A DNA stretch of 64,000 nt from Bradyrhizobium oropedii (GTDB lineage Bacteria > Pseudomonadota > Alphaproteobacteria > Rhizobiales > Xanthobacteraceae): NCBI RefSeq assembly GCF_020889685.1, contig NZ_JACMYO010000011.1:1-64000 (forward strand), read 5' to 3'. Below the pieces are notes generated by a model. The model had not been told where the DNA came from. It saw only the letters and a list, made by a program, of their open reading frames with translations, and did not search any database. The stretch's first letter is position 1, and every line of letters begins with the position of its first letter. Both the position numbers and the translations under genes were made by a program. Below, in pieces: positions 29,415 through 63,312 of this stretch.

Positions 29415-29465
29415 TGGCTGGGGCGGGAGGGATCGAACCTCCGAATGGCGGAATCAAAATCCGCT
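29415..29465 (-). pseudogene. tRNA-Gln(TTG) 3' half, likely attachment-site scar
   Basis: The minus strand reads the 3' part of tRNA-Gln: the anticodon arm with loop TTTTGAT (anticodon TTG), variable loop, T arm GGAGGTTCGATCCCTCC, acceptor CGCCCCA and encoded GCCA end. The D arm and 5' acceptor strand are absent, and identity stops abruptly at 29465. Integrases that use tRNA genes leave exactly such a 3' fragment at the far end of the element. Its orientation places the inserted DNA to the right. The intact tRNA would be at the other end, outside the window. Confidence 0.87.
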
Positions 29466-29558: not shown

Positions 29559-29589
29559 GGCAGCCCTCCATGAGGGGGTCAGGGCTGCC
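29559..29589 (-). terminator. Hairpin terminator of the SNF2 gene
   Basis: GGCAGCCCT (29559-29567) pairs with AGGGCTGCC (29581-29589). On the minus strand the hairpin overlaps the stop codon of the helicase gene and is followed by TTTATATTT, a good Rho-independent terminator tail. Confidence 0.75.
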
Positions 29590-32071
29590 GTCCACGCAAA
29601 CTCTCGGCTACTGCCGAGAGCACATTGGCCAGTTGCCTCGCCATCTCCGGTGGCGGCAGCGGAACCTTGAGAGTTTGCGCGCCGGTGTGCGGATCGCGCT
29701 CGACCCATGAACGTGCGACAGAGCCGGAGTCGTTCGCGGCCGCAATGGTGCCAATGAACTGTGCACCGATCTGCAGCAGCAATTGCCATGGATCGGAAGA
29801 TGCGTCGCCCAACCGCTGTTCGGCTTCGCCGGCCAGCGCGACCGCCACATCGTCAGCACCGACAACTGGATCTGCATCGACGGCGCCGACTGATTGTCCG
29901 CTGGCGGCGCCGTCGACCGCTCCTGCCTCCTCGGCAGGGGGGATGGCTTCGCCCGCACCCATGGTTCCCGTGACACCTTCCACGTCCTTCAGGAAGCGGT
30001 TGAGCCGCGACCCGCCCAGCGAAATCTCGCCGCTGCCACCGTCGAGAATTCCTTCCGACAACGAACGCTTGAATGCCAACACCGAAAGCATGCCCTCTTC
30101 GATCGAGCCTTTCGCAACGAAATTGATGACCTGAACCGGCCGCGCCTGGCCGAGCCGATGGACGCGTGCGATGCGTTGTTCGAGCACTGCCGGATTCCAT
30201 GGCAGGTCCATGTTCACCAGTGTCGAAGCGTGCTGCAAATTGAGACCCGTGCTGCCGGCATCGGTCGACAGGAACACGCGACAGGCGGGATCGTCGCGAA
30301 AGCGCTGAATGAGTTCCGGCCGCTTGTCCGACGGCACGCCACCATGGAAGCTCACATAGCCGATCCCACGCGCCTCCAGGCGGCGGATAACGATGTCATG
30401 GGTCCGCGTCCATTGCGAGAACACCACGGCTTTGGTCTCCGGCGTCGCAAACAACTGCTCGAACAGCGCGGCCAGTTCATCGGCCTTGACGCCGTGGTCA
30501 GTCTGCTGATCGAGCAGATAGGTGCTGTTGCAGGACATGCGCATGTTCTGAAGGGCGCAGGTCAGGCGCCGTTGATCCTTGTCCGAGAGAAACCTGGTCT
30601 TGCGCCAGCGTTGGACAATCCGGGCCACGATGTCCGCATTTTCCTGATGAAAAAGCTTTTGCGGTTCGGTCATTGGAACCAGCACGTTCTGGTCCGTCCG
30701 ACTGGGCAACTGCTGGAGCACCTCCGGCTTTCGCCGGCGGATCATGATAGGCGCCAGGGTTTGGCCAATCTTCTTCAGCCCCGTATAGCCAGTGACGCGG
30801 CCGGCCTCGTCCTTGACCTGATGTTCGTGCAAGAGCTTCCAGGTGGGACCCAGCCGGTGCTGATCGACGAATTGCACGATCGAGATCAATTCTTCCAGCT
30901 TGTTCTCCAGGGGCGTTCCAGTCAAAACGATCGCATACGGACTGTCGATGCGTTTCAAGGCTCTCGCTGCAATTGTGTTCCAATTTTTTACACGCTGAGC
31001 TTCGTCGACGATGACCAGTTCAGGCGCCCAGGCGGCGATCAGGTCTAGATCGCCCTGCAGCTTCTCATAGTTCGTAATCTTGCAGAAGTCGTCGAGCCCA
31101 TAGTCGTTCTGCCGTCGGGTTCGCCCGCCACTTATGACGCGCGCCGCGCGCTTGCCTCGCCGCCCGGAAAAACGAGCTATCTCGCTCTGCCATTGGTATT
31201 TGAGGGATGTCGGGCAAATCACCAGGACTCTCGATACGCCGAAGTGGCGGGCCAGTATTTCTGTCGCGGCGATTGCCTGTATCGTCTTGCCCAATCCCAT
31301 ATCGTCGCCGATCAACGCCCGACCAGCCCTCACCGCGAACAGCGCGCCCTCGGCCTGATAGGGATAAAGCGCCACCTTCAGGAGTCCTCGCAGCTTGGGG
31401 TCGGCGGCACCGCGCGGGAACAATCGCTCGAGCTTGGAAGCTCGATGATCGGCGTCCTGCCTTCCAGCAACGAAATCGAGGGTATCGTCATAGGCGCGAA
31501 ACTCGTGACCACTCTCCGACACCGAGGTCATGAAGCGCTTGAGCTCGCCCAGTCGATCGTCTGCGAGGATTCCATCACGCTTCATATCGAACAAGCGATC
31601 GGCAGCCAGCCTCACCGCTGGCGGACAATCCGTCCCGGGACGGAAGTGCACGCGGCGCGGGCCTGCATTGCGCAAATAGAGCTCGGAGAAGGCCGGCTGG
31701 TAGCCGCGTGCGAACGCTGCTTTTGCGCCTCGCTTTTTCTCTAATTGGGCGAGGGTGAACTCCAGGTGCTTGCAGGTCCCCAACTCATTCGTTGCGTAGT
31801 CGGGGCAAGAGCAGAAATTGCCTCCCGGCCCCAGGCCACGTACCGCCACGCGGTAACTCGATTTCGAATCGGGATTGGTGACCCGGAACTCGGAGAAGAA
31901 CGGCTCGCTGCCGAGATTTTCCAGCACAAAGGATTGCTCGCGGCCAAACTGGCGGCGTAAACCGCGCTGCCAATCGGCCGGTGATAGATCAACGGGCGCG
32001 TGGGTGCGCGCAAGCTTGACTTCTTTGTTCGGTTTCACGGCGGGCTCGCAACTACGGTACATCGATCTCAT
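29579..32071 (-). CDS. SWIM zinc-finger SNF2 helicase
   Basis: The 830-residue protein starts with a SWIM zinc finger (C87, C89, C100, H102 in the pattern CxC-n-CxH), followed by a SNF2/Rad54-type motor. The motor has Walker A GDDMGLGKT at 255-263, DEAQ at 356-359, LTGTPLENKLEEL, and C-terminal motifs STDAGSTGLNLQ and RVHRLGQ. Such proteins translocate on double-stranded DNA and remodel protein-DNA complexes. Bacterial SWIM-SNF2 proteins occur in mobile elements and defence contexts. After residue about 690 there is an acidic Ala/Gly/Asp-rich linker and a short helical tail. It is the first gene inside the element and stands alone. Confidence 0.9.
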   Translation of the reverse strand: MRSMYRSCEPAVKPNKEVKLARTHAPVDLSPADWQRGLRRQFGREQSFVLENLGSEPFFSEFRVTNPDSKSSYRVAVRGLGPGGNFCSCPDYATNELGTCKHLEFTLAQLEKKRGAKAAFARGYQPAFSELYLRNAGPRRVHFRPGTDCPPAVRLAADRLFDMKRDGILADDRLGELKRFMTSVSESGHEFRAYDDTLDFVAGRQDADHRASKLERLFPRGAADPKLRGLLKVALYPYQAEGALFAVRAGRALIGDDMGLGKTIQAIAATEILARHFGVSRVLVICPTSLKYQWQSEIARFSGRRGKRAARVISGGRTRRQNDYGLDDFCKITNYEKLQGDLDLIAAWAPELVIVDEAQRVKNWNTIAARALKRIDSPYAIVLTGTPLENKLEELISIVQFVDQHRLGPTWKLLHEHQVKDEAGRVTGYTGLKKIGQTLAPIMIRRRKPEVLQQLPSRTDQNVLVPMTEPQKLFHQENADIVARIVQRWRKTRFLSDKDQRRLTCALQNMRMSCNSTYLLDQQTDHGVKADELAALFEQLFATPETKAVVFSQWTRTHDIVIRRLEARGIGYVSFHGGVPSDKRPELIQRFRDDPACRVFLSTDAGSTGLNLQHASTLVNMDLPWNPAVLEQRIARVHRLGQARPVQVINFVAKGSIEEGMLSVLAFKRSLSEGILDGGSGEISLGGSRLNRFLKDVEGVTGTMGAGEAIPPAEEAGAVDGAASGQSVGAVDADPVVGADDVAVALAGEAEQRLGDASSDPWQLLLQIGAQFIGTIAAANDSGSVARSWVERDPHTGAQTLKVPLPPPEMARQLANVLSAVAESLRGRQP

Positions 32072-34228: not shown

Positions 34229-35749
34229 ATGCAAGCAGTAAGCGATTCGGCCGAACTTTTCAGGCACGTCAGCGCCGAAAAGGCCTACCTTTATCGCTGC
34301 ATCATGGACGTTTTCGCCGCAGCCAAGCGGCAGTACCGGCTGCAGCTAAGACCGGACGAAGTGCTTGCCGAAGCTCGATGGCCAGCCAAGCTCCCTGAGA
34401 TTGAAGAAGTCAATGCCGCGCTGACCCAGCTCACCGCTTGGGGCAATCTGGAGTCGCATCCTGACACTGCGCGGGTGTCCAGTCTCAGTGATTTCTACCG
34501 TGCTCGCTATCTCTATCGGCTCTCGCAGGGCGGTGAAGCCGTAGAATCGGCACTGGCGCTTTTCGTGCAGACCCTGGAGCGCCGCGCCGAACTGCAAAGC
34601 GTAGCCCTCGAAGACATCGCAAGCCGGCTCGAAGCCCTGCGGGCGCTGGCTGCCGAGACCGAGCCGGATGCGGCCAAGGTCCATGAAACGCTTCGGGATC
34701 TCGTCCGCGTTTTCGAAGGCCTTGCCGAGAATGCACAGGCGTTCATGGCCGGCGTTGCACGCAGCATTGAGCTGCAGCAGGCCCAAGCCGGTGCAGTGCT
34801 GAACTACAAGCGACAACTCATCGATTATCTGGAGCGCTTCATCGGCGATCTGGTGCGTCGGTCCGACACTATCGCCGGCTTGATCGATGCTCTGGAGCCC
34901 AGGATCGATGCGATGCTGCAACAGGTCGCCGCGCGCGAAGGGCGCGACGCCGCTCCGGGCGAAATCCAGGATCAGATCGACGCGCAAACCCGTTACCGGG
35001 GCGCATGGCGCGAGCGCTGGAGGGGGCTGCGTGGCTGGTTCTTCCGCTCCAGCCACGAACCATCGCAAGCCGAGCTGTTGCGAGCGCGGGCACGATCGGC
35101 CATTCCGCAGCTTCTGGCGGCCATCGCTGCACTCAATGAACGGCGGAGCGGCCGCAGCGATCGCTCAGCCGACTTCCGCGTTCTGGCCGGCTGGTTTGCC
35201 GCCTGCGCCGACGACAACGAGGCCCATCGGCTTGCCCGCGCCGCCTTTGCGCTAAATCCCGCGCGGCATTTCTCGCTCGACATCGATGCGGGGCTTGACC
35301 TGCCGGCCACCACCCGCTGGGCCGATGCCCCGCCCTTGGTGATTCACCCCCGCTTGCGTGAATACGGCGAAGCCGCTCCAAGAGGGCCTCTGCCGCGCGT
35401 ACGGGACCGTACGGAGGCCCGCGCGCGCCTGGCGCGCGAACTCGCACAAGAATCTCAGCAGGTCGAGGCAGCTCGCAAGCGCCTGGCGACCGGGCTGCCC
35501 ACACATCTTTCCAGCCTGGGCGAGCTCGACGCACACGCCTTCAGCCTGTTCTTGGGATTGCTTGGCGAAGCTCTGTCCGAGCAAGCTGGTCCAGAATCCG
35601 TAGCAGAACGGCCGACAGGTGACGGTCTGTTGCACATTCATCTGAAGCCGCTTCCTCCGGACAGTTATGCCGAAATCAATACGCCGCGGGGCACGTTCGG
35701 CGGGCGCGACCACGTGATCACAATCACATCGACACAAGACGCGCAATGA
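34229..35749 (+). CDS. jetA: Wadjet JetA-like kleisin subunit (DUF2397 family)
   Basis: The 506-residue protein matches DUF2397 (TIGR02677). Its N-terminus ELFRHVSAEKAYLYRCIMDV is the family hallmark, followed by helical coiled segments (residues about 100-270) and a C-terminal winged-helix-like region. In Wadjet/EptABCD systems this is the kleisin that bridges the two heads of the SMC dimer JetC and holds JetB. I chose the ATG at 34229, which begins the conserved region. The gene overlaps jetB by four bases, and all four jet genes overlap the same way, showing one operon. Confidence 0.87.
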   Translation: MQAVSDSAELFRHVSAEKAYLYRCIMDVFAAAKRQYRLQLRPDEVLAEARWPAKLPEIEEVNAALTQLTAWGNLESHPDTARVSSLSDFYRARYLYRLSQGGEAVESALALFVQTLERRAELQSVALEDIASRLEALRALAAETEPDAAKVHETLRDLVRVFEGLAENAQAFMAGVARSIELQQAQAGAVLNYKRQLIDYLERFIGDLVRRSDTIAGLIDALEPRIDAMLQQVAAREGRDAAPGEIQDQIDAQTRYRGAWRERWRGLRGWFFRSSHEPSQAELLRARARSAIPQLLAAIAALNERRSGRSDRSADFRVLAGWFAACADDNEAHRLARAAFALNPARHFSLDIDAGLDLPATTRWADAPPLVIHPRLREYGEAAPRGPLPRVRDRTEARARLARELAQESQQVEAARKRLATGLPTHLSSLGELDAHAFSLFLGLLGEALSEQAGPESVAERPTGDGLLHIHLKPLPPDSYAEINTPRGTFGGRDHVITITSTQDAQ

Positions 35750-37038
35750 AGACAAGTCGTCAGAGACCCAGGGACAGCCGCAGCATCGGCCAGCAGCAGC
35801 GCCAGTTCCAGCGCGAAGAATTTCGTAGCGCCCTTCGCGCCTTGTTGATGACGCCGTTGATGAGCCCGATGCATGAAGACTTCATTGCAGTGCGCCGCCA
35901 GGCAAACGCCCTGCAAGAGTGGTTTACCCGCGAAACCGGATGGCCGTTACAGATCGGACGGGAGGGCGCGCGCCTTTACAAGCGGCCCGCCGATCTCAAC
36001 AACTCCACCCGGGGCCTGCCCGACTATGATCGCCGCAAGTATGTGCTGCTCTGCCTTGCCTGCGCGGTGCTCGAACGCGCCGACCCCCAAGTCACCCTTC
36101 GCATTCTGGGAGAAAGATTACTCGGTTTTTCCGCCGAACCGGGACTGACGTCACTCGGTTTCACCTTCACGCTCGGCTCCCATCACGAGCGACGCGAACT
36201 GGTGGCGGTGTGCCGTACCTTGTTGAGCCTGGGCGTGCTGCAACGTGTTGCCGGTGACGAAGATGCTTTCGTGCAGGGTGGAGGCGATCAGGCGGATGCG
36301 CTCTACGATGTGCATCGGCCGGCGCTCGCCGGCCTACTGGCGGCCGTGCGGGGCCCGTCGACCTGGCCCGCAGAAGAGGCGCCCAACACACTGGACCAGC
36401 GGTTGCACACTCTGCTCGATGAGCACGTCGCGGACAGCGACGAGGGTCAGCGCACGGCGTTGAGACACCGGATCGCGCGTCGCCTCCTCGACGATCCGGC
36501 GGTTTACCTTGAAGACTTGAACCCGGACGCCCGTTCCTATTTCATAAACCAACGCGGGGCGATGGCCGCCCGTCTGTGCGACGCGACAGGTTTGGTCGCA
36601 GAGCAGCGAGCCGAGGGGCTGGCCCTTGTCGATGAAACAGGCACGCTAACGGATGTCGCAATGCCTGCCGAAGGCACCGATGCGCATGTGACATTGCTGG
36701 CTGCAGAATATCTCGCCACGGACTACCGGCAGCAAACCGATACCGCTGGTCGAAGGCAGCCCTTCGTCAAGCGCGAGCACGATATCGTCGACTTCCTGCG
36801 TGACGCCAAGAGCCGATATGGCCGCTATTGGCGGAAATCGGCACGCGAACCAGGCGCCGAACGTGAGCTCGCGAAGATTGCCATAGGGCGTCTTGAGAAG
36901 CTCCAGCTAATTGTCAGGAGCGCAGACTCCATCCTGCCGCTTCCGGCGCTCGCGCGTTTCGCGCTCGGCGAGGCCGAAATCCGCCAGGAAACACCGGACA
37001 TGCCAATCCCCGTCTCCGATGATCTCTTTTCCAGATGA
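35746..37038 (+). CDS. jetB: Wadjet JetB-like KITE subunit (DUF2398 family)
   Basis: The 430-residue protein fits DUF2398 (TIGR02678). The N-terminal third has FRSALRALLMTPLMSPMHED and the family segment GLPDYDRRKYVLLCLACAVL. The remainder is a string of winged-helix-type domains. JetB is the KITE-like subunit that dimerises and binds the kleisin JetA, regulating the SMC ATPase. The ATG overlaps the jetA stop (ATGA). Length is close to family members, with no truncation seen. Confidence 0.86.
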   Translation: MKTSRQRPRDSRSIGQQQRQFQREEFRSALRALLMTPLMSPMHEDFIAVRRQANALQEWFTRETGWPLQIGREGARLYKRPADLNNSTRGLPDYDRRKYVLLCLACAVLERADPQVTLRILGERLLGFSAEPGLTSLGFTFTLGSHHERRELVAVCRTLLSLGVLQRVAGDEDAFVQGGGDQADALYDVHRPALAGLLAAVRGPSTWPAEEAPNTLDQRLHTLLDEHVADSDEGQRTALRHRIARRLLDDPAVYLEDLNPDARSYFINQRGAMAARLCDATGLVAEQRAEGLALVDETGTLTDVAMPAEGTDAHVTLLAAEYLATDYRQQTDTAGRRQPFVKREHDIVDFLRDAKSRYGRYWRKSAREPGAERELAKIAIGRLEKLQLIVRSADSILPLPALARFALGEAEIRQETPDMPIPVSDDLFSR

Positions 37039-40000
37039 AGACGATGTCGGCCTTGCTTTCGCCACCGCACGAGAGGCCGAATCTACCAGTTCCAGCGCAA
37101 CCGCGCTGGCAACCCTTACGGCTCGGTGTCGTGGAGCTGTTTCATTACGACAGTGAAGAATTCTGGTTCCGCGACGGCCATCTGCTCTTGCGCGGCAATA
37201 ACGGCACCGGCAAGTCGAAGGTGCTGTCGTTGACCCTGCCCTTCCTGCTCGACGCGCAGGTCAAGCCATCGCGCATCGAACCCGACGGGGACAGCGGCAA
37301 GAGAATGGCCTGGAATCTCCTGATGAACAGCCACGATCGTCGCAATGGCTATGCGTGGATCGAATTCGGCCGCCTCGCCGACGACGGTACGCCGCGATAT
37401 CTGTCGCTCGGGGTCGGACTTTCCGCGGTCGCCGCCCGTCCGCAGGTGGAAAGCTGGTTCTTCCTGATCGAGGAAGCAGAGCAGGCGCCGCGCATCAATC
37501 AGGACCTCTGGTTGATGAGCGACCAGCGCGTCGTATTGACCAGGGAACGCCTTCGCGACGCTCTCCATAGCCATGGCCAGGTCTTCGACACCGCGACCAG
37601 CTATCGTCGCGCGGTCGACGAACGTCTGTTTCACCTCGGCGCCAAGCGTTACGATGCATTGATGGACACCCTTATCCAGTTGCGGCAGCCGCAACTTTCC
37701 AGGAAGCCGGATGAAACTGCGCTCTCGAACGCACTGACGGAGGCCTTGCCGCCACTTGCGCCGGAGTTGCTCGGCGATGTGGCCGAAGCGCTCGGCCAAC
37801 TCGAGGAGGACCGCCGTCAGCTTGAAGAATACCAGGCATTGACCAAGGCCGTTGTGCAATTCGACCAACGCTATCGCATTTACGCCGGAACGCAGAGCCG
37901 CCGGCAAGCGCGCGCGCTGCGTCAGGCCCAGACTGAATTCGACAGCGCCAGCCGAGCGCGCAGCGAGGCTCAAGTCCGGCTTGAGAACGCAAGCAGCGAT
38001 GAGGCGAAAGCCCAGACCGCACATCATGAGACGGAGGTCGCCCTGGCCAGCGAACGCGCCCGCCTCGAAACGCTACGTAGCAGCCCGACGATGGAAGATG
38101 CCAACCGCCTCGAATTGGCCGTGAAGGAAGCCGAGGTGCGTGGACGCGCAGCGCAGGGAGCAGCTTCAACCCTCGAGGAGTCAACCAAACGATCGGAGCG
38201 CAGCGCGAAGGATACGGAACTCGCCAATCAACGCGCGCTCGCGGCCGAACACAGGATGACTGGATTGCGTCATGACGGCATGACCCATGCCGAGGCGGCG
38301 GGTATCGCCAGCCTCCATGCGGAGAACCCGCTGTCAACGCTCACGACCAATGCACTGGTCGAGCTGACGCAAAAGACGTTCGACGGTGCATCGACCGCGC
38401 TGCAAGAATTGGTCACCAGACGACGCGAACAGATCGCGCTGCTCCGCCAGCGCCACGCCGACATGGCGTCCATCGAGACCGAGCACGCACAGCGCCTGCG
38501 TACACGTAATGATAGACAGGATGCGGTCGAAACCGCAGTGCACCGACGTGAGCTGGCCGATGCCGACGTTGAACGCAAGGGCATCGATCTCATCGAGACC
38601 TGGGAGCGATACTTCGCTAGCGTGAAACAACTGCAAGTTGGTTCCGACGATTGTCTTGCGGCGTTGGCGGCCTTGGGCGACTGGGTCGCGGCCCTGGATG
38701 GAGATAACCCGGCGCGCCTTTTGCTGCAGGCAGCCCAGTTGCAAACCAATTGGCGGCTTGCACAACGTCGCGCCACACTCGACGGCAAACGCCAGGTGCT
38801 GGAGGCTGAGCGCGAGACCCTCGGAGACGAGCGTAGCTGTCTCGAAGCCGGTATCGACACGATGCCCCCCGCACCTTACACGCGAAGCTCCGATGCGAGG
38901 GCTGCCCGTACCGGCGCGCCACTCTGGCAATTGGTGGACTTTCGTGACGCGGTAACCAGTCCGCAGCGGGCCGGCCTCGAAGCTGCGCTGGAAGCTGCCG
39001 GCCTTCTGGATGCATGGGTTTCGCCCGATGGCCGGCTGCAAACCAGAGATGGCGGCTCCATGCTGCACGATACGCAGGTCTTGGAGCGAGGACCGCATCC
39101 GACGTCACTTGCCAATTGGCTGCAGGCGGCCCTGCCGGACCACAGCACCGTATCAGTTGATGTCATCGAGCGGGTGCTGGCAACGATCGCCTGCAGCGAC
39201 GACGATCTTGTCGATAGTGAAGCGTGGGTGGCTCCGGACGGCCGATTCCGCCTTGGCAGTCTGGCAGGTGCCTGGGACAAACCTGCGGCGGTCTACATCG
39301 GATACGCTGCTCGCGCAGCGGCCCGTGAGCGACGGCTGGCCGAAATTGCCGAGAGACTAGTGTCAGTCGGCCATGAACTCGCGGCCCTGCAGGCGGAGAC
39401 CGAGCAACTCACCAACGATCAGCACGAGACAGACGCTGAATGGCGCCTGGCTCCGGCCGATGATGTCCTTCGAGAAGCCCACATCGCCGGCGTCGCTGCC
39501 GCCCGCGAGGCACAACTTGCCCGCGACCGGTTGGGCGAGGCAGACGCTCAATACCGGGAGGCGGAAGAAAATCTGCGGAGAGCGCGTGAACGGCTTGCCG
39601 CTGACGCTAGCGATTTGCGTTTGCCAATATCACCTGCCGCCCTGCCTGCGATCGAAGCGGCGCTGAACAACTATCAGGACGCGCAGATCCGGCTCACGCA
39701 AACCATCCATGAGCTGCGCCTGGCGCTCGCAGACCTACATAGGCAACGCGCCCGCGAAGCTGAACTGCTTGACGACGTGAAGAGGCATCAAGAGCAACGC
39801 GATACGGCTCGGATCGAGGCGGAAGAAGCATCATCGCGGCTTGTTGTATTGCGCGAAGCGGTAGGTGCAAGAGTCGAGGAACTGCAGCAGATGCTCAGCG
39901 AGGCGCGTGCCGGCGTCGACGGGTACGAGACCGAATGGAAGAAGGCAGGGACGGCCTTGCAAAAGGCCGGCGAAGCCCGTGCCGTCGCCCACGAGCAGTC

Positions 40001-41198
40001 CGCGACCGCTAATGTGGCGTTTGAGCGCGGCAGCGAAGCGCGTGCACAAGCCGTTTCGAAGTTCCGGCAATTCACCTTGGCAGGTCTGCTGTCGGCCGCA
40101 TTGACAGACCTGGAGGTACCGGACGCTAGCAGCCCCTGGACGATAGATCCGGCGCTGACGCTGGCCCGCCGCGCCGAACAGGCCCTGTCCGGCGTAAAGG
40201 ACGACGACGAGGCGTGGACGCGCGTCCAGCGGCAGATCGGCGAAGACTTTACCGAACTGCAACGTTCCCTCAGCGCGCTCGGCCATCAGGTGCTTGCCGA
40301 ACAGAGCGACTGGGGCCTCATCGTAAACGTCATCTACCAGAACCGGTCCGAACGCCCGGACCGCCTCGCGACGCGGCTTGCGGCAGAGATCGACCAGCGT
40401 ACCGAGCTGTTGAACGCCAATGAGCGCGCTGTGCTGGAAAATCATCTTCAGGCCGAGATCGCCTCCGAAATCCAGCGTCTGCTGCAGACAGCGGAGGCGC
40501 AGCGCGATGCGATCAACAAAGAACTGTACAGTCGGCCAACATCCACGGGCGTACGCTTTCGTCTATTGTGGCCGCCTCTGTCGGAAGAAGAAGGCGCCCC
40601 CGTCGGCCTGGAGGCTGCGCGTAAACGTCTCCTCAATACCAACGCGGACCTGTGGTCGTCCGAGGACCGTCGGGTTGTCGGCGCGATGTTGCAGCAGCGC
40701 ATCGCAGCCGAGCGCGAGCTCGCCGAAGTGGATGGCGGCAGCCTGATCGACCAGCTTTCGCGCGCGCTCGACTATCGACGCTGGCACAGATTCCGCGTCG
40801 AGCGCTGGCAAGACGGTCAATGGCGAAAACTTTCCGGCCCGGCCTCCAGCGGGGAGCGAGCCCTCGGCCTCACCGTGCCATTGTTTGCCGCTGTCGCCAG
40901 CTTCTACAGCCAGGGCAGCTACGCGCTGGCACCGAGGTTGATTTTGCTCGACGAAGCCTTTGCCGGCATTGACGATACCGCACGCGCTCATTGTATGGGC
41001 CTCATCCGGGAGTTCGATCTGGATTTCGTCATTACGAGCGAACGAGAGTGGGCCTGCTACGCTGAACTGCCTGGCGTATCGATCTGCCAGTTGCAGCGGC
41101 AGGAGGGCATCGATGCAGTGTTCGTTTCGCGCTGGACCTGGGACGGAAAGGCAAGAGTACGGGAAGCCGATCCCGACCGCAGGTTTGCGCCGGCATGA
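37035..41198 (+). CDS. jetC: Wadjet JetC-like SMC ATPase (TIGR02680 family)
   Basis: This 1387-residue SMC/SbcC-like protein is the motor of the complex. An N-terminal half-ATPase has Walker A GNNGTGKS at residues 54-61. Two long coiled coils (about 240-560 and 720-1000) flank a hinge-like globular centre. The C-terminal half-ATPase has signature SSGERALGLT near 1271 and Walker B LILLDEAFAGIDD near 1301. In Wadjet, JetABC extrudes DNA loops using ATP and detects small circular DNA, which JetD then cuts. The family includes mycobacterial EptC, which restricts plasmids. Both ATPase halves look intact. Confidence 0.9.
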   Translation: MKTMSALLSPPHERPNLPVPAQPRWQPLRLGVVELFHYDSEEFWFRDGHLLLRGNNGTGKSKVLSLTLPFLLDAQVKPSRIEPDGDSGKRMAWNLLMNSHDRRNGYAWIEFGRLADDGTPRYLSLGVGLSAVAARPQVESWFFLIEEAEQAPRINQDLWLMSDQRVVLTRERLRDALHSHGQVFDTATSYRRAVDERLFHLGAKRYDALMDTLIQLRQPQLSRKPDETALSNALTEALPPLAPELLGDVAEALGQLEEDRRQLEEYQALTKAVVQFDQRYRIYAGTQSRRQARALRQAQTEFDSASRARSEAQVRLENASSDEAKAQTAHHETEVALASERARLETLRSSPTMEDANRLELAVKEAEVRGRAAQGAASTLEESTKRSERSAKDTELANQRALAAEHRMTGLRHDGMTHAEAAGIASLHAENPLSTLTTNALVELTQKTFDGASTALQELVTRRREQIALLRQRHADMASIETEHAQRLRTRNDRQDAVETAVHRRELADADVERKGIDLIETWERYFASVKQLQVGSDDCLAALAALGDWVAALDGDNPARLLLQAAQLQTNWRLAQRRATLDGKRQVLEAERETLGDERSCLEAGIDTMPPAPYTRSSDARAARTGAPLWQLVDFRDAVTSPQRAGLEAALEAAGLLDAWVSPDGRLQTRDGGSMLHDTQVLERGPHPTSLANWLQAALPDHSTVSVDVIERVLATIACSDDDLVDSEAWVAPDGRFRLGSLAGAWDKPAAVYIGYAARAAARERRLAEIAERLVSVGHELAALQAETEQLTNDQHETDAEWRLAPADDVLREAHIAGVAAAREAQLARDRLGEADAQYREAEENLRRARERLAADASDLRLPISPAALPAIEAALNNYQDAQIRLTQTIHELRLALADLHRQRAREAELLDDVKRHQEQRDTARIEAEEASSRLVVLREAVGARVEELQQMLSEARAGVDGYETEWKKAGTALQKAGEARAVAHEQSATANVAFERGSEARAQAVSKFRQFTLAGLLSAALTDLEVPDASSPWTIDPALTLARRAEQALSGVKDDDEAWTRVQRQIGEDFTELQRSLSALGHQVLAEQSDWGLIVNVIYQNRSERPDRLATRLAAEIDQRTELLNANERAVLENHLQAEIASEIQRLLQTAEAQRDAINKELYSRPTSTGVRFRLLWPPLSEEEGAPVGLEAARKRLLNTNADLWSSEDRRVVGAMLQQRIAAERELAEVDGGSLIDQLSRALDYRRWHRFRVERWQDGQWRKLSGPASSGERALGLTVPLFAAVASFYSQGSYALAPRLILLDEAFAGIDDTARAHCMGLIREFDLDFVITSEREWACYAELPGVSICQLQRQEGIDAVFVSRWTWDGKARVREADPDRRFAPA

Positions 41199-42454
41199 CC
41201 GATGGGACCGAAGAACGTCTTCGACGCCTGCTCGGCGGCAACCATCTCGCCTCCCTGCGCAAGCGCCTGCGTCGGCGCTTCGAACGCGTGCCGCTGAATG
41301 GCGTGGTCGAGAGTTTTCGCATCGGCGACTTGACGGCGCCGGAGCACGCTGCGCTGGCTTCGCTGCTGGGTCGTCCGCAGCACTACGCGAGTTCGCTGCG
41401 GATCGATGTTCGCCAGGTCGACGCCGCCTTCCGGAATTCTGGCATCGCCTTCTCGCTGCGCGACGCGCTTGAGCGGCTTGACGGCCCGATTGCCAACCTC
41501 GCTAGCGAGCGATTTCAATCGCAAACCCTTTGGTCGGATGTGATCAGGGGCTGCAATCACCCCGGACTCGTCGGATTGCTCGAGAATCCGGCAGGCTTGG
41601 GCCTGCTCAAACGCCTCGCCAAACGAGAGCCTTCGGCAGCGAGCCAATTATGTCGCCGTGCTGAAGCGGTCCTGCAACGTCTGCCGGCGAACGGCATCAC
41701 GCGCTCGCAACTGGCTGCCGAGGTGTTGGGCGATGCCCATGCGCTGGATAGCGGACGGGCAACAGCCACCATCGTGATGGCGGTCTGCCGCCAGGCCATC
41801 CCGCGAACCTACGATGACTCTGTGGAGGAGAGCCCGGACGAGGAGAGACAAGACGGAGAACGGGATCGCGACATCTGGGCGAAGGTAGGGGTTCTCGTCA
41901 ACGAACTGGCACGCCCTGCCCTCTTTCTGAATCTCCCCACGAGCGAAACGGAAAGCTACGGAAGGCCGCCGGGAGAGCCGGCGTACGCGTCGCTGCGCGT
42001 TTTGCTGCGTTCATCGCCCAGATGGAACGTCGCCGGACGCGAAGTATACGTTTGCGAGAATGCAAACCTGCTTTCGATCGCTGCCGACCGCTGGGGTGCC
42101 AATTGCGCTCCGATGGTCTGCACCGATGGCATGCCGGCCGCCGCGCAGCGATGCCTACTCTCTCAACTCGCGTCCGCCGGCGCGCGACTTCAATATCATG
42201 GCGATTTCGACTGGCCGGGACTGCACATTGGCAACCACGTCATGCGGGAACACGGCGCGCAACCGTGGCGTTTCCTCGCGGAGGATTACGAGCTTGCCCT
42301 CCGGGCGGCCTCAGCCATCCCAGCCCCCCTCACGGGGAAGGTGGTCGACGCTGCCTGGGATCCGGCGTTGACGAAGGCTATGCGACATCATCGAGTCTCT
42401 ATCGCCGAAGAAGGCCTGGCGGCCTCATTGCTCGTCGACTTGGGCGACTACTAA
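41195..42454 (+). CDS. jetD: Wadjet JetD-like TOPRIM nuclease (DUF2399 family)
   Basis: The 419-residue protein fits DUF2399 (TIGR02679) with its N-terminal DUF3323-like region. The C-terminal half is TOPRIM-like. The glutamate motif appears in VYVCENANLL (about residue 285), then CTDGMPAAAQ, then the aspartate pair HGDFDWPGLHI (about 334). These are the metal-binding acids of TOPRIM nucleases. In Wadjet, JetD cleaves plasmid DNA after JetABC has extruded it. The catalytic motifs are intact, so the system may be functional. The gene ends the operon and abuts a decayed adhesin gene on the other strand. Confidence 0.87.
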   Translation: MTDGTEERLRRLLGGNHLASLRKRLRRRFERVPLNGVVESFRIGDLTAPEHAALASLLGRPQHYASSLRIDVRQVDAAFRNSGIAFSLRDALERLDGPIANLASERFQSQTLWSDVIRGCNHPGLVGLLENPAGLGLLKRLAKREPSAASQLCRRAEAVLQRLPANGITRSQLAAEVLGDAHALDSGRATATIVMAVCRQAIPRTYDDSVEESPDEERQDGERDRDIWAKVGVLVNELARPALFLNLPTSETESYGRPPGEPAYASLRVLLRSSPRWNVAGREVYVCENANLLSIAADRWGANCAPMVCTDGMPAAAQRCLLSQLASAGARLQYHGDFDWPGLHIGNHVMREHGAQPWRFLAEDYELALRAASAIPAPLTGKVVDAAWDPALTKAMRHHRVSIAEEGLAASLLVDLGDY

Positions 42455-48345: not shown

Positions 48346-49134
48346 TCAACGCATCAGGCGTCGACGAAACAGTGCCGCCGACAGGAAGAACGGCAATACT
48401 GCGTACATGCAAATTATACCGATATGCAGGCCGACGCTGCCGGCCGGGCGGCCAAGCATCGCCGGACGAATGAGATCGATCGAATGTGCCAGCGGCAAGA
48501 AGCGCCCCACCTGCTGAAAGGCGTCGGGCAGTTGGGTAACCGGGAAGACCGCGCCGGACAGGAACAGCATGGGTGTGAGGACGAGCGTCTGGTGAAACAC
48601 GAAATAGTCGTAACTTGGTGAAAGCGCTGCGACGACCATCGCCAGGCTCGCGAAGGTGAGACCGGTAAGGGCGATAGCTGGCAGCGCATAGAGGATGGAT
48701 GGCCACGCTGCGTAGCCCAGGATGGCGGCAACAATCGTAATTGCCGTCCCGGCCAGAAAGGCCTTGCTGGCTGCCCACGCCGCTTCACCGAGAAGGATGT
48801 CGCCGAGCGTGAGCTGCGTGCACAGGACTGCTTCCCAGGTGCGCTGATGATGCATGCGAGCGAAAGCCGCATGAATGGTTTCGAAGGTGGCGGAAATCAT
48901 CGCGCTTGTCGCGACCATGCCAGCCGCCAGAAACGCGACATATGAGGTGCCGTCAACGCGACCTAGCATTGCTCCGAGGCCCAAGCCGAGGCCGAATAGA
49001 GAGCTCATGGGCTCGGCGGCGTTCCCGAGAACCGATGCCAGCGCGACTTTCCGCCACGCCAGATAGTTGCGTCGCCATACCGCGATCCAGTTCCACGCAT
49101 TGGCGGGCAGAGCCGCCGCATAACGTCCCCACAT
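48346..49134 (-). CDS. nodJ: Nod factor export ABC permease NodJ
   Basis: A 262-residue inner-membrane protein of the ABC-2 permease type with about six transmembrane helices, and the NodJ pattern [20 protein letters not shown] at the start and [20 protein letters not shown] near the C-terminal part. NodI and NodJ together export lipochitooligosaccharide Nod factors. The gene begins three bases after nodI and appears complete, with no frameshift or missing segment. Confidence 0.93.
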
Positions 49135-49137
49135 GGT

Positions 49138-50052
49138 TCAGTCCTTCATCTCCCGACCAGTCAGCAGCAAAAAGACATCCTCAAGATTCGGTGGACGCTG
49201 CAGAAAGCGTAGACCCGTGTGCCCGCGCGGCTGCCCGCGCACCCGCTCCGGATCTGGCGCATAGCAAAAGAGCGTCTCACCGCTCACGTCGATACGCTGC
49301 GCGTACGGCCTGATCAGCGCACCGAACTCATGCGGATTGCCACCGTAGATCTCGATCACTTGGCAGCCGATCTGCTCGTCGATTAGGATGTGAGGCCGGC
49401 CTTCAGCGATCTTGCGCCCTTGCTCGAGTACGCACAGCCGGTCGCACAACCGCTCGGCTTCTTCCATGAAGTGGGTGGTCAGAAGAATCGTCTTGCCGCG
49501 CGCCAACAGCGAGCGCAACCGTTCCCAGATCAGGTGGCGCGCGTGCGGATCGAGGCCGGTTGTCGGCTCGTCCATGACGAGGAGCTGAGGGTCATTGATG
49601 AGCGCACGCGCTATCGTCAGGCGCCGCTTCATGCCGCCAGAGAGTTCGGCGACGCGCGCATTCGTCTTGTTCTCGAGGCGAGCGAACTCGAGCAGTGACG
49701 GCGTGACCGCTTCGATTTGGTGCGCGCTCATGCCGAAATAGCGCCCGAACACCAGCAGGTTCTCCCGGACTGTGAACTCAAGATCAAGATTGTCGAATTG
49801 CGGGACCACGCCTATGCGCATGCGAGCCAAGCGAGCGCGTCCCGGCACTGGTTCCCCGAGCACGGTGATGTTGCCCGCGTCAGCTGACGCCATGCCGAGA
49901 ACCATGCGCGCAATCGTGCTCTTGCCTACGCCATTCGGTCCCAGCAAGCCGAAGCACTCTCCCGACGCAACGGTGAACGACAGCCGGTCGACAACGACCT
50001 TGTCGCCATATGACTTTGTTACGCCGGTAAGGCCGATCGCTATCGCGGACAT
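49138..50052 (-). CDS. nodI: Nod factor export ATP-binding protein NodI
   Basis: The 304-residue ATPase has Walker [10 protein letters not shown], signature LSGGMKRRL, Walker [14 protein letters not shown] and the switch His in LLTTHFMEE, all intact. The C-terminal extension typical of NodI follows. With NodJ it powers Nod factor secretion. Its start overlaps the end of nodU by 13 bases. The intact state of nodI and nodJ contrasts with their broken neighbours nodU and nodS. Confidence 0.94.
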
Positions 50053-51759
50053 GCGCTCATCTTGGCGTGAGGGATGCCGTCGCCCGGCGATAGCTCAGCT
50101 GCAAGCGGCTTGGTCAACAGCAGGCCGTCGCACCATACGTGTTCAACGCGTCCCCACTGGCAGGCTGCGGCGGCATCCGGAAAAAACCCACGCCCATGGT
50201 GGTTGGCACTTGTATTGCAAAGCGGCGGAATGCCCGTGAGTTTTTCATATTCGACGAGAAGCTCAGCGACTTTGTGCTCAGAGTTTCTAGGAACGGTCTG
50301 CAACCGGGCAGACCCGTCGAGATGTACAACGGCGGGGATTTTGTCCCGCCATTCCGCTCGCGACTGGTGATCGAACAGCATGTAAGGATCCGGCGTTCCA
50401 GGGCTGAAAATTTCCGGCGCGCGATCTTCCAGGCATATCGGCGCCACTGGCCGGAAGTGTTCGCGACGTTTGATGTCGTTAAGATGATCCTTCATTCCCG
50501 CCGATGTCGCGGCTGCGAGAATGCTTCTGCCGCCCAACGCTCGTGGTCCGAGCTCAGCGCGGCCGGCGAGGAAAATCACGGGCTTATTGCTCGCCAGGAT
50601 GGCAGCAAGTTCATGCATACTACACGGCGCAGCCTCCCACTCAGACGGCACATCGGTGCGTGCCAGGGCAGGGCCACTGTAGACCGACCATTCCGGCACG
50701 AAGCCTATGTCCGCCGCCATTGCGGCACAAGCCGCGCCGATTGCCGAGCCGCTGTCATTCGGAAAGGGCGGCACCCAGACAGCATCGCACAGGCCATTAG
50801 CACGTAGTGCACTGTTCCATTTTATGTCGAGACCGCAGCCACCGGCTATACACAAGTTGCGCGATCCCGGAAAACCCGAATGCCGCTGCAAAGCGACTGT
50901 CACTTCCTGAACAAGGAGACGCTCGAGAAAACAATGAAAAGATGCAAGTACATCTTCGGGTGCCTTAGCCTTCAATCGCAGCGCGCTCCGCTCGAAGAAG
51001 TCGTGCATAGCCGCAAGTGACGACTCCGCGCTGTTTATGCCCGCTCGGTAACGGCGAGCCTGCTCCGTGTCGGCCGCAAAGCGCTCCTCGTAGAGCTCCT
51101 GAAATACCGCCATCATGGCTTCATCAGCACACCCGAGCGCGGTGTAAGCCATCAGCTTGTCGGCAACACCTAGGTCCCAGCCGGTCCGGTTCGCCTGCCT
51201 ATAAGGTCCGAAGTGAGAGCCAGCGGCACCATATGCATGGCCTATCATCGGGAACAGGCATTCGAGGAACCGGGCGCCCCGACGATCTACATAGTAGAGA
51301 CGTGGAAAGATGCAGCCGTCCCATACCAAGCAGAAGGCTGGTTGTCCGGCTTTGGCAAAGGGGCTGGTGCAGTATGCGGAGGCCACATGGCCTGTGACAT
51401 GCGGATAGCTTCTATAAGGGAAGAGCCTGCCCTCGAGCATGAGCCCAAAGCCGTCGTGCGAAGTGAGAAGGCCCTCGGCATAGCGTTCAACATACGGCGC
51501 CCCTTTAAGAGTGATCGCTGCCGCCCCACTGAGGGCCTCGGATTGGGATTCGACTTCCCCGTCCCAACCATCGATGACAAACCGATCGACATCCCGCGGA
51601 TCCAGACCGTGCTCCGCTAAAGCGGCGACAACTGCGTCGAGATTGTCGATGGCTTGATATCGCAGATTGTTGCCCCGCTTCTCCTGCTCGACGCAACCGT
51701 CCGTCCTCGACAAGAGCGATCGCCCCGTCATGCGTCAGCTTTATACCGCAGATGCGCAT
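50040..51759 (-). pseudogene. nodU: Carbamoyltransferase NodU, frameshifted near its start
   Basis: NodU adds a carbamoyl group to the non-reducing end of Nod factors. The natural start at 51759 encodes MRICGIKLTHDGAIALVEDG, the expected NodU N-terminus, and then runs out of frame. The rest (VEQEKRGNNLRYQ to the end at 50040, about 555 residues) continues in another frame. The usual gene has about eight more bases between DGR and CVEQEK, so a small deletion caused the shift. An ATG at 51731 could start the downstream frame but would replace the THDGA active-site segment. The remaining body looks complete. Confidence 0.8.
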
Positions 51760-52386
51760 TGTGCCTCCATGTCAACGTCGGCGATTCGATTGACTCGAGA
51801 TCGAATCGGATTTCGGAAGCAGGCGAGCAAGCAGTCTTCGTTGACCGACTCGTCATGGCACTGCAGCCGCTCGACCTCGATCAGCGTTTCGTTCAACATG
51901 CTGATGACCGTCTCGGCACCAGCATGGTGACCCAGCGCCGACACGTGGCATCGCGCGCGGATCCGAAAACCAGCGGCCCTTCTGGCGCAAGCATCCGCAC
52001 TAGGCGCGTATCTCGGCCGTGTCAGCCAGGTGATCGAGAACTGCCGCCACGACGATCAAATCGAACAGCTCTCCGGTCGAGAACTGCTGAACGTCGCAGA
52101 CTATCCACGTGATGTGCGACCATCTCTTCGTCCGTTGGCACGCTCGACCAATCGCTCGCGGCACGACATCGAGCGCTCTGAGCCGCTTGCAGTGCGGCGC
52201 CAGCTTTTCCGTGAATGCGCCGGCTGCGCACCCCACTTCGAGGGCATTTGTGATAGACCCTCTGGAAAGCGAAAGCCGCGGCATTTGCGTGTGACGCTCC
52301 CGCTCAAACGGATTTCCGTCGAGGCGCCACGGATCGTCGGCAGCCAGTTCCCGCTCTAACAGTTGGTATTTCTTATCCAGGCTCAC
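51741..52386 (-). pseudogene. nodS: N-methyltransferase NodS, two frameshifts
   Basis: NodS methylates the terminal amino group of the Nod factor, using S-adenosylmethionine. The first 128 residues are typical (YQLLERELAADDPWRLDGNP; SAM-binding LEVGCAAGAFTEKL) and end at a stop after AEIRA. The next piece (MLAPEGPLVFGSARD) lies in the same DNA but in a different frame, with about 20 bases missing between. A further single-base loss after CRRW puts the C-terminal piece (GHHAGAETVISMLNETLIEV) in a third frame. The protein therefore cannot be made whole. It overlaps nodU by 19 bases. Confidence 0.85.
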
Positions 52387-52435
52387 GAGCTATTCACCTA
52401 TGTAACTGCACGATCACTCGCCGCTGCAAGCGCTG

Positions 52436-53590
52436 TCAGACGTTACCAACGTCGAAGAAGCACACGAAAGATCCCTCCTTCGGATTGACCCACCAATTCC
52501 CGGACCTTCTGTAACATTTGGTCCAGCGACCGGATTTCGGATGACGACCTGCTTTCCCCCCGTTTGGTAGCTTGGCAGCCTGGCGCGACAGCCAATCGCT
52601 ATTGCTCAATGTACACAATGCATAGGCTTTCACGGGGAGTAAGAGAAAGATGTTGATGAGTGTGCGCAGAGAAAAGCCGAGAAATCGAAGTTCGCGAGCA
52701 CGAAACTCTGCGACGCTGCAGCGAACCACGGTCATTGATGCGATAATCAGTCCTGCCCACCACGGCACTGTGGCTGTGAGTGCGAGCTGCGCGAGCGCCG
52801 TTAGCGATGACAGGGCGAGAAGTAGCGGGCCGAGATTCTGTCCGACTACATCTAGCGTGAGATAGCGATCCTCACCGAAGTCGCTTGGCTTTCCCCGAAA
52901 GAATTGCGTCTCGTACTGATCTAGTAGCAACAGGAGCGCGGAACGACGGTACATCGCACATGGGCCGCAGCAGCACATAACGGCGCCGAAGCGAGCTTGT
53001 GCCGCGCGCTCTTCGTTGCAAGCCAACCAGTACTCCATATCAATCAACCGGGTCAGCCAAGTGTCGCTTCGGTTGCTCGCCGTCAACTGCCCCATGGCCG
53101 CCCCGATCGCTGGATCCTGCATCTTCCGTGCAAGCTTCGTGACCACATCGGCAGCTATTATCGTGTCCGAGTCGACGTTGAGCACGAGATCTCCAGATGA
53201 GCGGCGTATCACAGCGATCTGTGCCTTCCGCTTTCCGACATTCTTTCGCAGCAGAATGAAGCCGAACCTCGGGTCGTCAGAGTAGGCGTCGTGAACGGGT
53301 GCCACAGCGTCGAGATTTCCAGAACCGTCATCAACCACATAGACCCGCAGCTTTCCGGCGTAGTCTTGGCTTGCAATGGACTTCAGACACGCCGAGAGCG
53401 TACGCGGGTCCTCGTTGAAGCAGAGGACGATGACATCCACGCTTGGTAGAGCGTCGGAGTTGACCACGTCGCCCGACGGCGATGAAACGTTTGTCGGCAG
53501 AGCATAAAGCACCTGCACGCTTCTATGGACAGTCGAGAGAAGCGCATAGACCGAGATAGCGACAGTGCTGGTTGTGGTAAGCAGGTTCAT
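52436..53590 (-). CDS. nodC: Chitin-oligosaccharide synthase NodC with internal deletion
   Basis: NodC polymerises the N-acetylglucosamine backbone of Nod factors at the inner membrane. The N-terminal membrane helix and GT2 catalytic start are intact (VDVIVLCFNEDP; the DxD-type NVDSDT; MGQLTASNRSDTWLTRLIDM), up to SDFGEDR at about residue 241. The chain then jumps to YLTLDVVGQNLGPLL. Family members have about 60 residues between these, including the QxxRW motif required for processive synthesis. I find no QxxRW anywhere in the product. The frame stays open to 384 residues. The ATG at 53590 overlaps the nodB stop. The enzyme is very probably inactive. Confidence 0.85.
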   Translation of the reverse strand: MNLLTTTSTVAISVYALLSTVHRSVQVLYALPTNVSSPSGDVVNSDALPSVDVIVLCFNEDPRTLSACLKSIASQDYAGKLRVYVVDDGSGNLDAVAPVHDAYSDDPRFGFILLRKNVGKRKAQIAVIRRSSGDLVLNVDSDTIIAADVVTKLARKMQDPAIGAAMGQLTASNRSDTWLTRLIDMEYWLACNEERAAQARFGAVMCCCGPCAMYRRSALLLLLDQYETQFFRGKPSDFGEDRYLTLDVVGQNLGPLLLALSSLTALAQLALTATVPWWAGLIIASMTVVRCSVAEFRARELRFLGFSLRTLINIFLLLPVKAYALCTLSNSDWLSRQAAKLPNGGKAGRHPKSGRWTKCYRRSGNWWVNPKEGSFVCFFDVGNV

Positions 53591-54261
53591 AGGGTGCCGG
53601 TTTGGTGAGGTTGAGGAAGCGAGCGGATTGAAAATCCGCGGACATGCAATGCTGGAATCAGGTTGGAAAGCGCCAAGACGGTCTGATCGCGCAGACCAGC
53701 ATGAGTGCCCCGTCCCAACTCGCTGGGTGGACATCCATCGTGCAAGAGCACAATTGCTCCCGGCCGGATAGAGGCCATCACCGCGTTGACAATCGCGTCA
53801 ACGCCGGGACGAGACCAGTCTCGCGGGTCTACCGACCAGTGCAGGGCAGCCAGCCCAGCCCTCGCTGACGTAGCGAGCACCTCTTCGGTCCACATGCCAT
53901 AGGGTGCACGCATGTGCCGCGGCGAGGCCTGGGGGCATGCCATCCTGATGACTCTGCTCGCCGTTAGTATTTCTTGTTGCACTTCGGCGAGTTCGCATCT
54001 GGACAAGTCCGGATGAGTCATTGTGTGGTTTGCGACCTCGTGCCCTTCTGCGACCATTCGTCTGATTAGTTTCGGCTGGTCCGCCGCGTACGCGCCAATG
54101 ACGAAGAAAGTCGCTGGCACTCGGTGTTCCGCCAGCACATCGAGGACATTCGGCGTGCAAAGTGGATTAGGACCGTCGTCAAACGTCAGATAGACGCCGC
54201 GACTTTCGGTGCGGTCAGCGTATTCGCCGCGCGCTTCGCAAGAGCAGTCGAGGTGTGTCAC
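53587..54261 (-). CDS. nodB: Chitooligosaccharide deacetylase NodB
   Basis: The 224-residue protein is a polysaccharide deacetylase (carbohydrate esterase 4). The metal site is complete: TFDDG with Asp28/Asp29, then His79 and His83 in HTMTH. RAPYG and LLHDG follow as motifs 3 and 5. NodB removes the acetyl group from the terminal sugar so that NodA can acylate it. It starts in an ATGA overlap with nodA. The sequence shows no breaks and should be functional. Confidence 0.94.
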
Positions 54262-54893
54262 AGCTCCGGCCCGTTCCGATCAATCATCGTGCCGGTCGGC
54301 CACTCGCTCATCGACCGTCCAATTGGTATAATCACGATGAGTACGTCCTCGGTGCGTGTGGGCGGCTTGTCGAGACGCACATCTGGAAGGGTCGACCGCA
54401 CGCGAACCCCCGACAAAACGGTTGCCAAACCCTGCCGGGCGCCCCTTTCAACATGCTTCTGCAGCACAGGCCGAACCGCGCCGAAGCCGAAGGGAACACC
54501 AAGCTCCTGCAGGGTTGGACGCAGGACGTGCACTGCACCGTGATAGGTGACTCCGAGTCCCTCAAAATCTCGACGTACCGCGTACAAACCTAGGTCGGCC
54601 ACTAGTACATCGACCGCGCCAACCTTGATGAAACGGCGCAGTAAGCCCATATGAGCCGCTACATCGCGCGAGTCGTAGCCGATTACACGGAGCTCAGGCC
54701 TCGCGCCGGCCCAACTTCGACTGCCTTCGAATGGCTTTCCATTAAACGCCCCAGTCGGCCCATACGTCTTTCGAAAGAACTCGGCGAGTTCGACATGGTC
54801 GGCGAGTTGCAACTCGTTTTCCCAGCACAGCTTCCACCGCACCTGAGAGCGCATTGAGAGACCCCCCGTAGAGCTGGATACGGCAATATTCAT
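54258..54893 (-). CDS. nodA: Nod factor N-acyltransferase NodA
   Basis: The 211-residue NodA adds a fatty acyl chain to the deacetylated terminal sugar of the chitin backbone. The conserved [35 protein letters not shown] and [15 protein letters not shown] segments are present. The ATG at 54893 has an AAGGAGG ribosome site and gives the family's normal length. It is the first gene of the nod operon and appears intact. The stop of a short response-regulator-like frame overlaps its start. Confidence 0.93.
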
Positions 54894-55186
54894 GGGTGCC
54901 TCCTTTGCGCCGACCGGCATTCGAGTGTGGACTTGACGCACGCGAGCAGTTCGCTACCGATGAACGGCTTCACCAGGGAATGGGAAACGCTGGCTCGCAG
55001 CGCCCGCAGCGTCGGGCGACGATCGAGGGTGACGTGCCTATCAGCGTCGATGGCCGGAGCAGTGTAACGCGCCTGAAGGTGACGAATAAATGCCCACCGA
55101 CGCCCAGCGCTGTCGCATCTGAAAACAGAGAAAGCCTCGTAATCGGAGTTATTTCGGAGCAGACGCAGGAACACACTTTTCGACAC
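54890..55186 (-). pseudogene. Response-regulator receiver remnant before nodA
   Basis: A 98-codon frame whose second half resembles the C-terminal part of a CheY-like receiver: an R-A-L-R-A helix, then [20 protein letters not shown] with the conserved Lys-Pro of receivers. The first half has no receiver sequence, and the phosphorylatable aspartate and acidic pair are absent, so it cannot work as a response regulator. It may be the 3' end of a NodW- or FixJ-like gene. Its stop overlaps the nodA start (ATGA). It could be a translated leader, but I favour a relic. Confidence 0.5.
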
Positions 55187-58439: not shown

Positions 58440-58538
58440 CGATAGTTGCCCCTGAGATCAAGTGATCGGTTTCGAATCGTGCGGTGTCCGCGTTTCATTC
58501 GCCCGCGCAGCGGCTGGCGAAGGCGCAGTGGCTAAGTG

Positions 58539-63302: not shown

Positions 63303-63312
63303 GACCGCGAAC

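What the first reader, a model, noticed from the sequence alone, without database searches (positions are those of the whole stretch)
34229..42454. Complete Wadjet-type system of the DUF2397/TIGR02680 subtype carried on a conjugative element
All four genes overlap by four bases and keep the key motifs (SMC Walker A/B and signature; TOPRIM Glu and Asp pair). Wadjet cleaves small circular DNA, and its presence on an element that itself transfers and circularises raises the question of self-avoidance. The element may escape by its size or by its integrated state.
Basis: partly seen in the sequence, partly recalled or inferred. Interest (0 to 1): 0.65.

Follow-up and report, generated by a model that had tools for sequence, protein, structure and literature searches.

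The report
Anti-plasmid system on symbiosis mobile element
A complete four-gene machine of a kind that cuts small circular DNA rides near the end of a mobile element that also carries root-nodulation and conjugation genes in a Bradyrhizobium soil bacterium, and the element is probably spared because it is too big to be a target.

Summary
jetA-D at 34229-42454 are full-length type II Wadjet genes, in order, joined by three ATGA overlaps, with the ATPase and TOPRIM residues intact. One end is at window 29415, with Wadjet 4.8 kb inside it, then nodABCUIJ and a trb/coupling/relaxase module. The other end, on another contig, has the intact tRNA, a divergent integrase-like gene and type III secretion genes. 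Three relatives show the empty site. In Bradyrhizobium altum Pear77 the compared element segments are 99.97-100% identical, apart from one gap in nodC, while flanking chromosome is 87-95% identical: recent transfer. Self-avoidance is best explained by size: published tRNA-Gln symICEs are about 0.68 Mb, and circles above about 100 kb escape Wadjet. A type II Wadjet also sits on a 578-kb nod-bearing conjugative plasmid of Cupriavidus taiwanensis. The system is a new member of a known kind; carriage by symbiosis elements is the new part. Function is inferred.

The parts
29415..29465 (-). attachment core: displaced 3' part of tRNA-Gln(UUG); left border of the ICE
   Evidence: 50-nt exact copy at the 3' end of the intact tRNA-Gln on contig C33; identity to B. 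altum starts here
29579..32071 (-). SNF2-family helicase, neighbour of type II Wadjet in some relatives
   Evidence: PF00176; full-length homologues beside Wadjet in L069, L072, L074
32222..33463 (-). HipA-family toxin
   Evidence: PF07804, PF13657
33463..33714 (-). HipB-like helix-turn-helix protein, 83 aa
   Evidence: translation; HTH_37, HTH_3 and others; named HipB by position
34229..35749 (+). jetA (kleisin-like; DUF2397, TIGR02677, JetA2)
35746..37038 (+). jetB (KITE-like; DUF2398, TIGR02678, JetB2)
37035..41198 (+). jetC (SMC ATPase; TIGR02680, JetC2)
   Evidence: solved relative 9qe0 chain A
41195..42454 (+). jetD (TOPRIM nuclease; DUF3323+DUF2399, TIGR02679, JetD2)
48346..54941 (-). 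nod cluster: nodJ, nodI, nodU, nodC (in-frame shortened), nodB, nodA
   Evidence: Pfam; nodulation annotations of matching plasmids; nodC shortening
55526..63470 (-). conjugation genes trbI, trbG, trbF, trbL, an unassigned ORF, trbE; continuing beyond the window with a T2SSE/VirB11-like ATPase, coupling protein, DUF3363 relaxase, SLT and replication initiator
   Evidence: Pfam

Best explanation
This is an intact type II Wadjet (jetABCD) carried as cargo, 4.8 kb inside one end of a large tRNA-Gln symbiosis ICE of Bradyrhizobium. Shown here: the four genes, their motifs, the ICE borders, the conjugation and nodulation modules, the empty site in relatives and near-identity with a second, clearly different Bradyrhizobium genome. 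Inferred from the family: JetABC loads on DNA and extrudes loops; on a small circle the two motors meet and JetD cuts. Small and medium plasmids, and small excised elements, are thus removed from any cell that holds the ICE. Inferred: the ICE is spared because its integrated form is part of the chromosome and its excised circle is far above the roughly 100 kb limit. The likely benefit is to the element: it keeps rival small circular elements out of its host.
For: Family matches far above cut-offs for all four genes. Catalytic residues conserved. Frame-intact operon with three ATGA overlaps. trb, coupling, relaxase and replication genes on the same contig. Attachment core found exactly twice in the own genome, once at the intact tRNA-Gln beside an integrase-like gene. 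Empty site with the two chromosome halves contiguous in 3 genomes, G139, G044 and G011. Identity to B. altum: 1 difference in 21,781 bases at the Wadjet end and 1 in 24,240 at the tRNA end, against 144 in 2,088 just outside the tRNA. Published tRNA-Gln symICE size about 0.68 Mb and Wadjet limit of about 100 kb. JetC relatives on plasmids: 15 of 72,556 records, the smallest 148,985 bases.
Against: No activity or expression was measured. The ICE is split over contigs. Physically shown length is 49.4 kb plus 24.2 kb, below 100 kb; it passes 100 kb only if the nif segment, 31.1 kb at 99.99% identity to B. altum, is counted as part of it. The integrase-like gene has no direct Pfam, PHROGs or NCBIfam match; only a 32% homologue in the same genome matches Phage_integrase (E 1.9e-5, below the curated cut-off). 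Plasmid sizes are weak support: only 2 of the 15 JetC records cover 80% of the query, and in the HipA control 6 of 60 listed records (of 99) are under 100 kb, not clearly different from 0 of 15. Type II systems may have a different size limit from the systems measured.
Confidence: 0.8

Rival explanations
1. Passenger: the Wadjet is intact but serves only the host cell or nobody, having been caught by the ICE near its end as ordinary accessory cargo.
For: In the stretches fetched around the other 10 Bradyrhizobium Wadjets over the cut-off there was no nodA, B, C, J or U, no trb, no rhcV and no ICE integrase; three had only 31-34% ABC-ATPase matches to nodI. jetD ends against decayed adhesin-like sequence, as expected of a chance insertion.
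Against: Intact, with a single base difference over 21.8 kb to B. altum, and kept on an element that moved recently. A second, only 42% similar type II Wadjet also sits on a symbiosis plasmid.
Confidence: 0.3
2. Self-limiting system: Wadjet attacks the excised ICE circle and so slows its transfer, or is regulated to be silent during transfer.
For: It lies on the element that circularises; a hipBA-like pair stands just upstream.
Against: Expected circle size is far above the reported limit, and the element moved recently with Wadjet intact.
Confidence: 0.06
3. JetABCD without nuclease role: a condensin-like complex that helps fold or partition the large ICE.
For: JetABC closely resembles MukBEF-type SMC complexes (PMC10586767, passages).
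Against: jetD is intact with E288, D337, D339 conserved; a pure condensin would not need it.
Confidence: 0.05

Closest known systems
Wadjet type II (JetABCD, TIGR02677/02678/02680/02679)
   Same: All four genes, order, domains and motifs; solved relatives JetC and JetA in PDB 9qe0/9qe1
   Different: Nothing seen in the proteins; the carrier (nodulation ICE) is unusual. Nearest non-identical JetC is 71% identical over its best segment
Monopartite tRNA-Gln symICE of Bradyrhizobium (PMC9174649; part 1 of 3 of the text read plus passages)
   Same: Inserted in tRNA-Gln, symbiosis genes, monopartite as far as seen
   Different: Wadjet is not mentioned in the parts read; size in this strain unknown
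Wadjet on genomic islands and ICE-like elements (PMC12629846, PAPI-2 islands; PMC12375680, F. caldus type I; passages read)
   Same: Wadjet carried within mobile or ICE-like DNA
   Different: Other hosts; no symbiosis genes in the passages read
Cupriavidus taiwanensis 578-kb conjugative plasmid NZ_CP016951.1
   Same: Type II jetABCD and nod genes on one conjugative element
   Different: Plasmid, not ICE; JetC only 42% identical, so probably an independent acquisition

Membership tests
Wadjet type II | four adjacent genes jetA-B-C-D in one operon | tested here: met
Wadjet type II | family profiles DUF2397, DUF2398, TIGR02680, DUF2399 rather than other types | tested here: met
   type 2 profiles best for all four; JetC1 only at 5e-7 over the Walker B end
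Wadjet type II | intact SMC ATPase motifs | tested here: met
Wadjet type II | TOPRIM acidic residues in JetD | tested here: met
   E288, D337, D339
Wadjet type II | removal of small circular DNA | not testable with these tools
   needs plasmid assays
Symbiosis ICE (tRNA-Gln symICE) | insertion at the 3' end of tRNA-Gln with a repeat at both ends | tested here: met
Symbiosis ICE (tRNA-Gln symICE) | relaxase, coupling protein, T4SS | tested here: met
Symbiosis ICE (tRNA-Gln symICE) | integrase at one end | tested here: inconclusive
   gene beside the tRNA is 58-59% identical to one beside the same core in B. altum and 32% to a protein that matches Phage_integrase at 1.9e-5; no direct family match
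Symbiosis ICE (tRNA-Gln symICE) | nodulation and nitrogen-fixation genes between the ends | tested here: inconclusive
   nod genes: met. nifH lies on a separate contig, 100% identical to B. altum, placed in the element only by inference
Symbiosis ICE (tRNA-Gln symICE) | excision and transfer | not testable with these tools
   near-identity in a diverged genome supports recent movement only

The most novel reading that the evidence does not exclude
Very large symbiosis elements use a size-gated nuclease as a weapon between mobile elements: being above the size limit themselves, they can carry a sequence-blind system that removes every smaller circular rival from the cell and so hold the symbiont niche. 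The SNF2 helicase at 29579-32071, also found beside type II Wadjet in unrelated bacteria, would be an accessory of this system.
Probability: 0.25. Interest if true: 0.65.

Novelty: new member of a known kind. Interest (0 to 1): 0.4.

Why it matters
It gives a natural case in which a system that destroys small circles travels on an element that must itself become a circle, so the size rule can be tested in one strain. It also suggests that nodulation elements, which spread among soil bacteria and decide which legumes are nodulated, may shape which plasmids their hosts can keep.

Tried and rejected
Generic ICE or plasmid: rejected because nod genes, type III secretion genes and the tRNA-Gln borders define a symbiosis ICE.

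B. altum locus as a circular form: its different integrase-like gene beside the core (L003) first looked like an excised circle. The ICE's own integrase-like gene was then found at the tRNA end in B. altum too, so a second element in tandem is more likely.

Integrase family: I first called the two genes tyrosine integrases from their C-terminal motif. Pfam, PHROGs and NCBIfam gave no match for either. Only their 32% homologue on contig C51 matched Phage_integrase, E 1.9e-5, under the curated cut-off. The report now says integrase-like.

General link between Wadjet and nod genes in Bradyrhizobium: not found. Nine of the 11 genomes with TIGR02680 over the cut-off also have nodA over its cut-off, against 71 of 117 overall (my tally). 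Besides the window, the stretches fetched around the other 10 showed no nodA, B, C, J, U or trb; some stretches were cut short by contig ends.

Plasmid size as proof of self-avoidance: the 15 JetC records are all of 148,985 bases or more, but only 2 cover 80% of the query. JetD gave 18 records, 17 of 216,910 bases or more and one partial hit on 72,694. The HipA control had 6 of 60 listed records (of 99) under 100 kb, so the test is weak. Ten of the 15 JetC records are Streptomyces, where linear plasmids are common (recalled).

SNF2 in the C. taiwanensis plasmid: only 29% identical, so not counted as the same neighbour. The SNF2 protein had no plasmid match at E 1e-100.
Full report
THE GENES. 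Four ORFs on the + strand, 34229-35749, 35746-37038, 37035-41198 and 41195-42454, match the four type II Wadjet families over nearly their whole length: TIGR02677 582 bits, TIGR02678 393, TIGR02680 1463 and TIGR02679 393, all far above the curated cut-offs. Pfam and PADLOC agree. The three junctions are each ATGA. In alignments of 90 rows each (some are duplicate copies of one locus; short pieces were dropped) the JetC Walker A, signature and Walker B residues and the JetD residues E288, D337 and D339 are at least 97% conserved and present in the window. A JetC and a JetA relative have solved structures, 9qe0/9qe1; JetD gave no credible PDB match by sequence.

THE CARRIER. Right of jetABCD, on the - strand, come nodJIUCBA and then trbI, trbG, trbF, trbL and trbE (nod names also from the annotated plasmids; the name nodJ for the ABC-2 permease is recalled). 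The contig continues to 78783 with a T2SSE-family ATPase, an MFS protein, a coupling protein, a DUF3363/relaxase protein, an IS110, an SLT protein and a replication initiator. Left of 29415 the ORFs scanned look like ordinary chromosome, with an mfd-like gene and metabolic genes.

THE BORDERS. A 50-base sequence at 29416-29465 occurs exactly twice in the 9.04-Mb genome, allowing 2 mismatches: here, and on contig C33 at the 3' end of an intact tRNA-Gln(UUG). Beside it on C33 is a gene 59% identical to one that abuts the same core in B. altum. It has the C-terminal R-H...H...Y pattern of tyrosine recombinases (my reading), but no family library matched it directly; its 32% homologue on contig C51 matches Phage_integrase at 1.9e-5. 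Further in are type III secretion genes (FHIPEP, YscJ_FliF, T3SS_ATPase_C, FliP, Bac_export_1). In G139, G044 and G011 the chromosome left of 29465 is contiguous, through an intact tRNA-Gln, with the chromosome on the far side of C33. This is the empty site. The element therefore runs from window 29415 to the C33 tRNA, and jetA starts 4.8 kb inside.

RECENT MOVEMENT. The JetC scan returned Bradyrhizobium altum Pear77 at 100% and the next relatives at 71% or below (80 loci kept of 105 confirmed). Window 29415-51195 differs from B. altum at one base of 21,781. At the tRNA end 1 of 24,240 bases differs inside the element and 144 of 2,088 just outside it, the last outside difference lying 14 bases before the tRNA; further chromosome is 87-91% identical. 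The chromosome left of the element is about 89% identical. A 31.1-kb segment with nifH is 99.99% identical. The one larger difference is a gap in nodC. That the two genomes are different species is inferred from these flank identities. In B. altum a second integrase-like gene stands at the other side of the core, which suggests a tandem element.

SELF-AVOIDANCE. Weisberg and colleagues (PMC9174649; part 1 of 3 and passages read) give about 0.68 Mb for the tRNA-Gln symICE. A review (PMC10586767; passages read) states that circles above about 100 kb, and linear DNA, escape Wadjet. A study in Clostridium cellulovorans (PMC12287153; abstract and passages read) quotes a threshold of 50-100 kb and reports that jetABCD limits conjugative plasmid uptake. 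Size is therefore the simplest answer. For this strain I can show only 49.4 + 24.2 kb of element, 104.7 kb with the nif segment placed by identity.

OTHER CARRIERS. On plasmids, JetC relatives (E up to 1e-20) occur in 15 of 72,556 records, all of 148,985 bases or more, 2 of them covering at least 80% of the query. One is the 578-kb conjugative plasmid of Cupriavidus taiwanensis (NZ_CP016951.1), which has jetABCD at 345472-353862 and nod genes at 14966-20697. Its JetC is 42% identical, so two unrelated symbiosis elements probably gained type II Wadjet separately. In Bradyrhizobium 11 of 117 sampled genomes pass the TIGR02680 cut-off; apart from the window none showed nodA, B, C, J, U or trb genes in the fetched stretch, though three had weak ABC-ATPase matches to nodI. 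In 4 of 79 other Wadjet loci (L004-L082) a trb gene lies within about 10 kb (L031, L039, L051, L059). No matched control was run for this.

NEIGHBOUR HELICASE. Full-length homologues (59-74%) of the SNF2 protein at 29579-32071 stand directly beside jetABCD in L069, L072 and L074, and partial ones in L032 and L073: 5 of 79 loci. In 139 other fetched loci (1.04 Mb, mostly Bradyrhizobium, including other Wadjet stretches) the only hits at E 1e-30 were copies of this same element. This is a lead, not a result.

LITERATURE. Searches for Wadjet with 'symbiosis island' (1 paper), 'Bradyrhizobium' (1), 'rhizobi' (4), 'integrative and conjugative element' (15) and 'megaplasmid' (6) listed no title or abstract start that reports Wadjet on a symbiosis element. 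I read passages of PMC12715929, PMC6579920, PMC12287153, PMC12629846, PMC12342005, PMC10482375, PMC12375680 and PMC10544981; the rest I saw only as listings. Wadjet on other islands or ICE-like DNA is already in print (PMC12629846; PMC12375680). The library is open-access only.

VERDICT. A real, intact, ordinary type II Wadjet on an interesting carrier. New member of a known kind; interest 0.4.

Noticed in passing
52436-53734 (-): nodC on this element is 177 bp (59 residues) shorter, in frame, than in the otherwise near-identical B. altum element; the missing part holds the QQLRW motif. A second nod operon with that motif is on contig C48.
   Followed up: partly
29579-32071 (-): SNF2 helicase whose homologues sit beside type II Wadjet in 3 loci fully and 2 partly, of 79.
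   Followed up: partly
42425-44583 (-): Antiparallel decayed sequence runs right up to the jetD stop: an ORF without Pfam match at 42425-43327 that reads like a repeat adhesin, then DUF5801 at 43639-44583, as if jetABCD had landed in a giant adhesin gene.
   Followed up: no
29415-29465 and L176: The tRNA-Gln(UUG)/mfd site looks like an insertion hotspot: two cores 13 kb apart in G070, about 42 kb between mfd and a core in G005; in G074 a different type II Wadjet (JetC 40% identical) lies 0.6 kb from a tRNA-Gln(UUG).
   Followed up: partly
genome G000, contigs C11, C48, C212: Three separate full-length nodA matches in one genome, the other two 61% and 75% identical to the window copy.
   Followed up: partly
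L003:977-2362 and L095:10563-12314 (-): Integrase-like proteins at the two sides of the tRNA-Gln core form a family that Pfam, PHROGs and NCBIfam do not recognise directly; 28-31% relatives on 6 Bradyrhizobium plasmid records are annotated hypothetical in 5 and not annotated in 1.
   Followed up: partly
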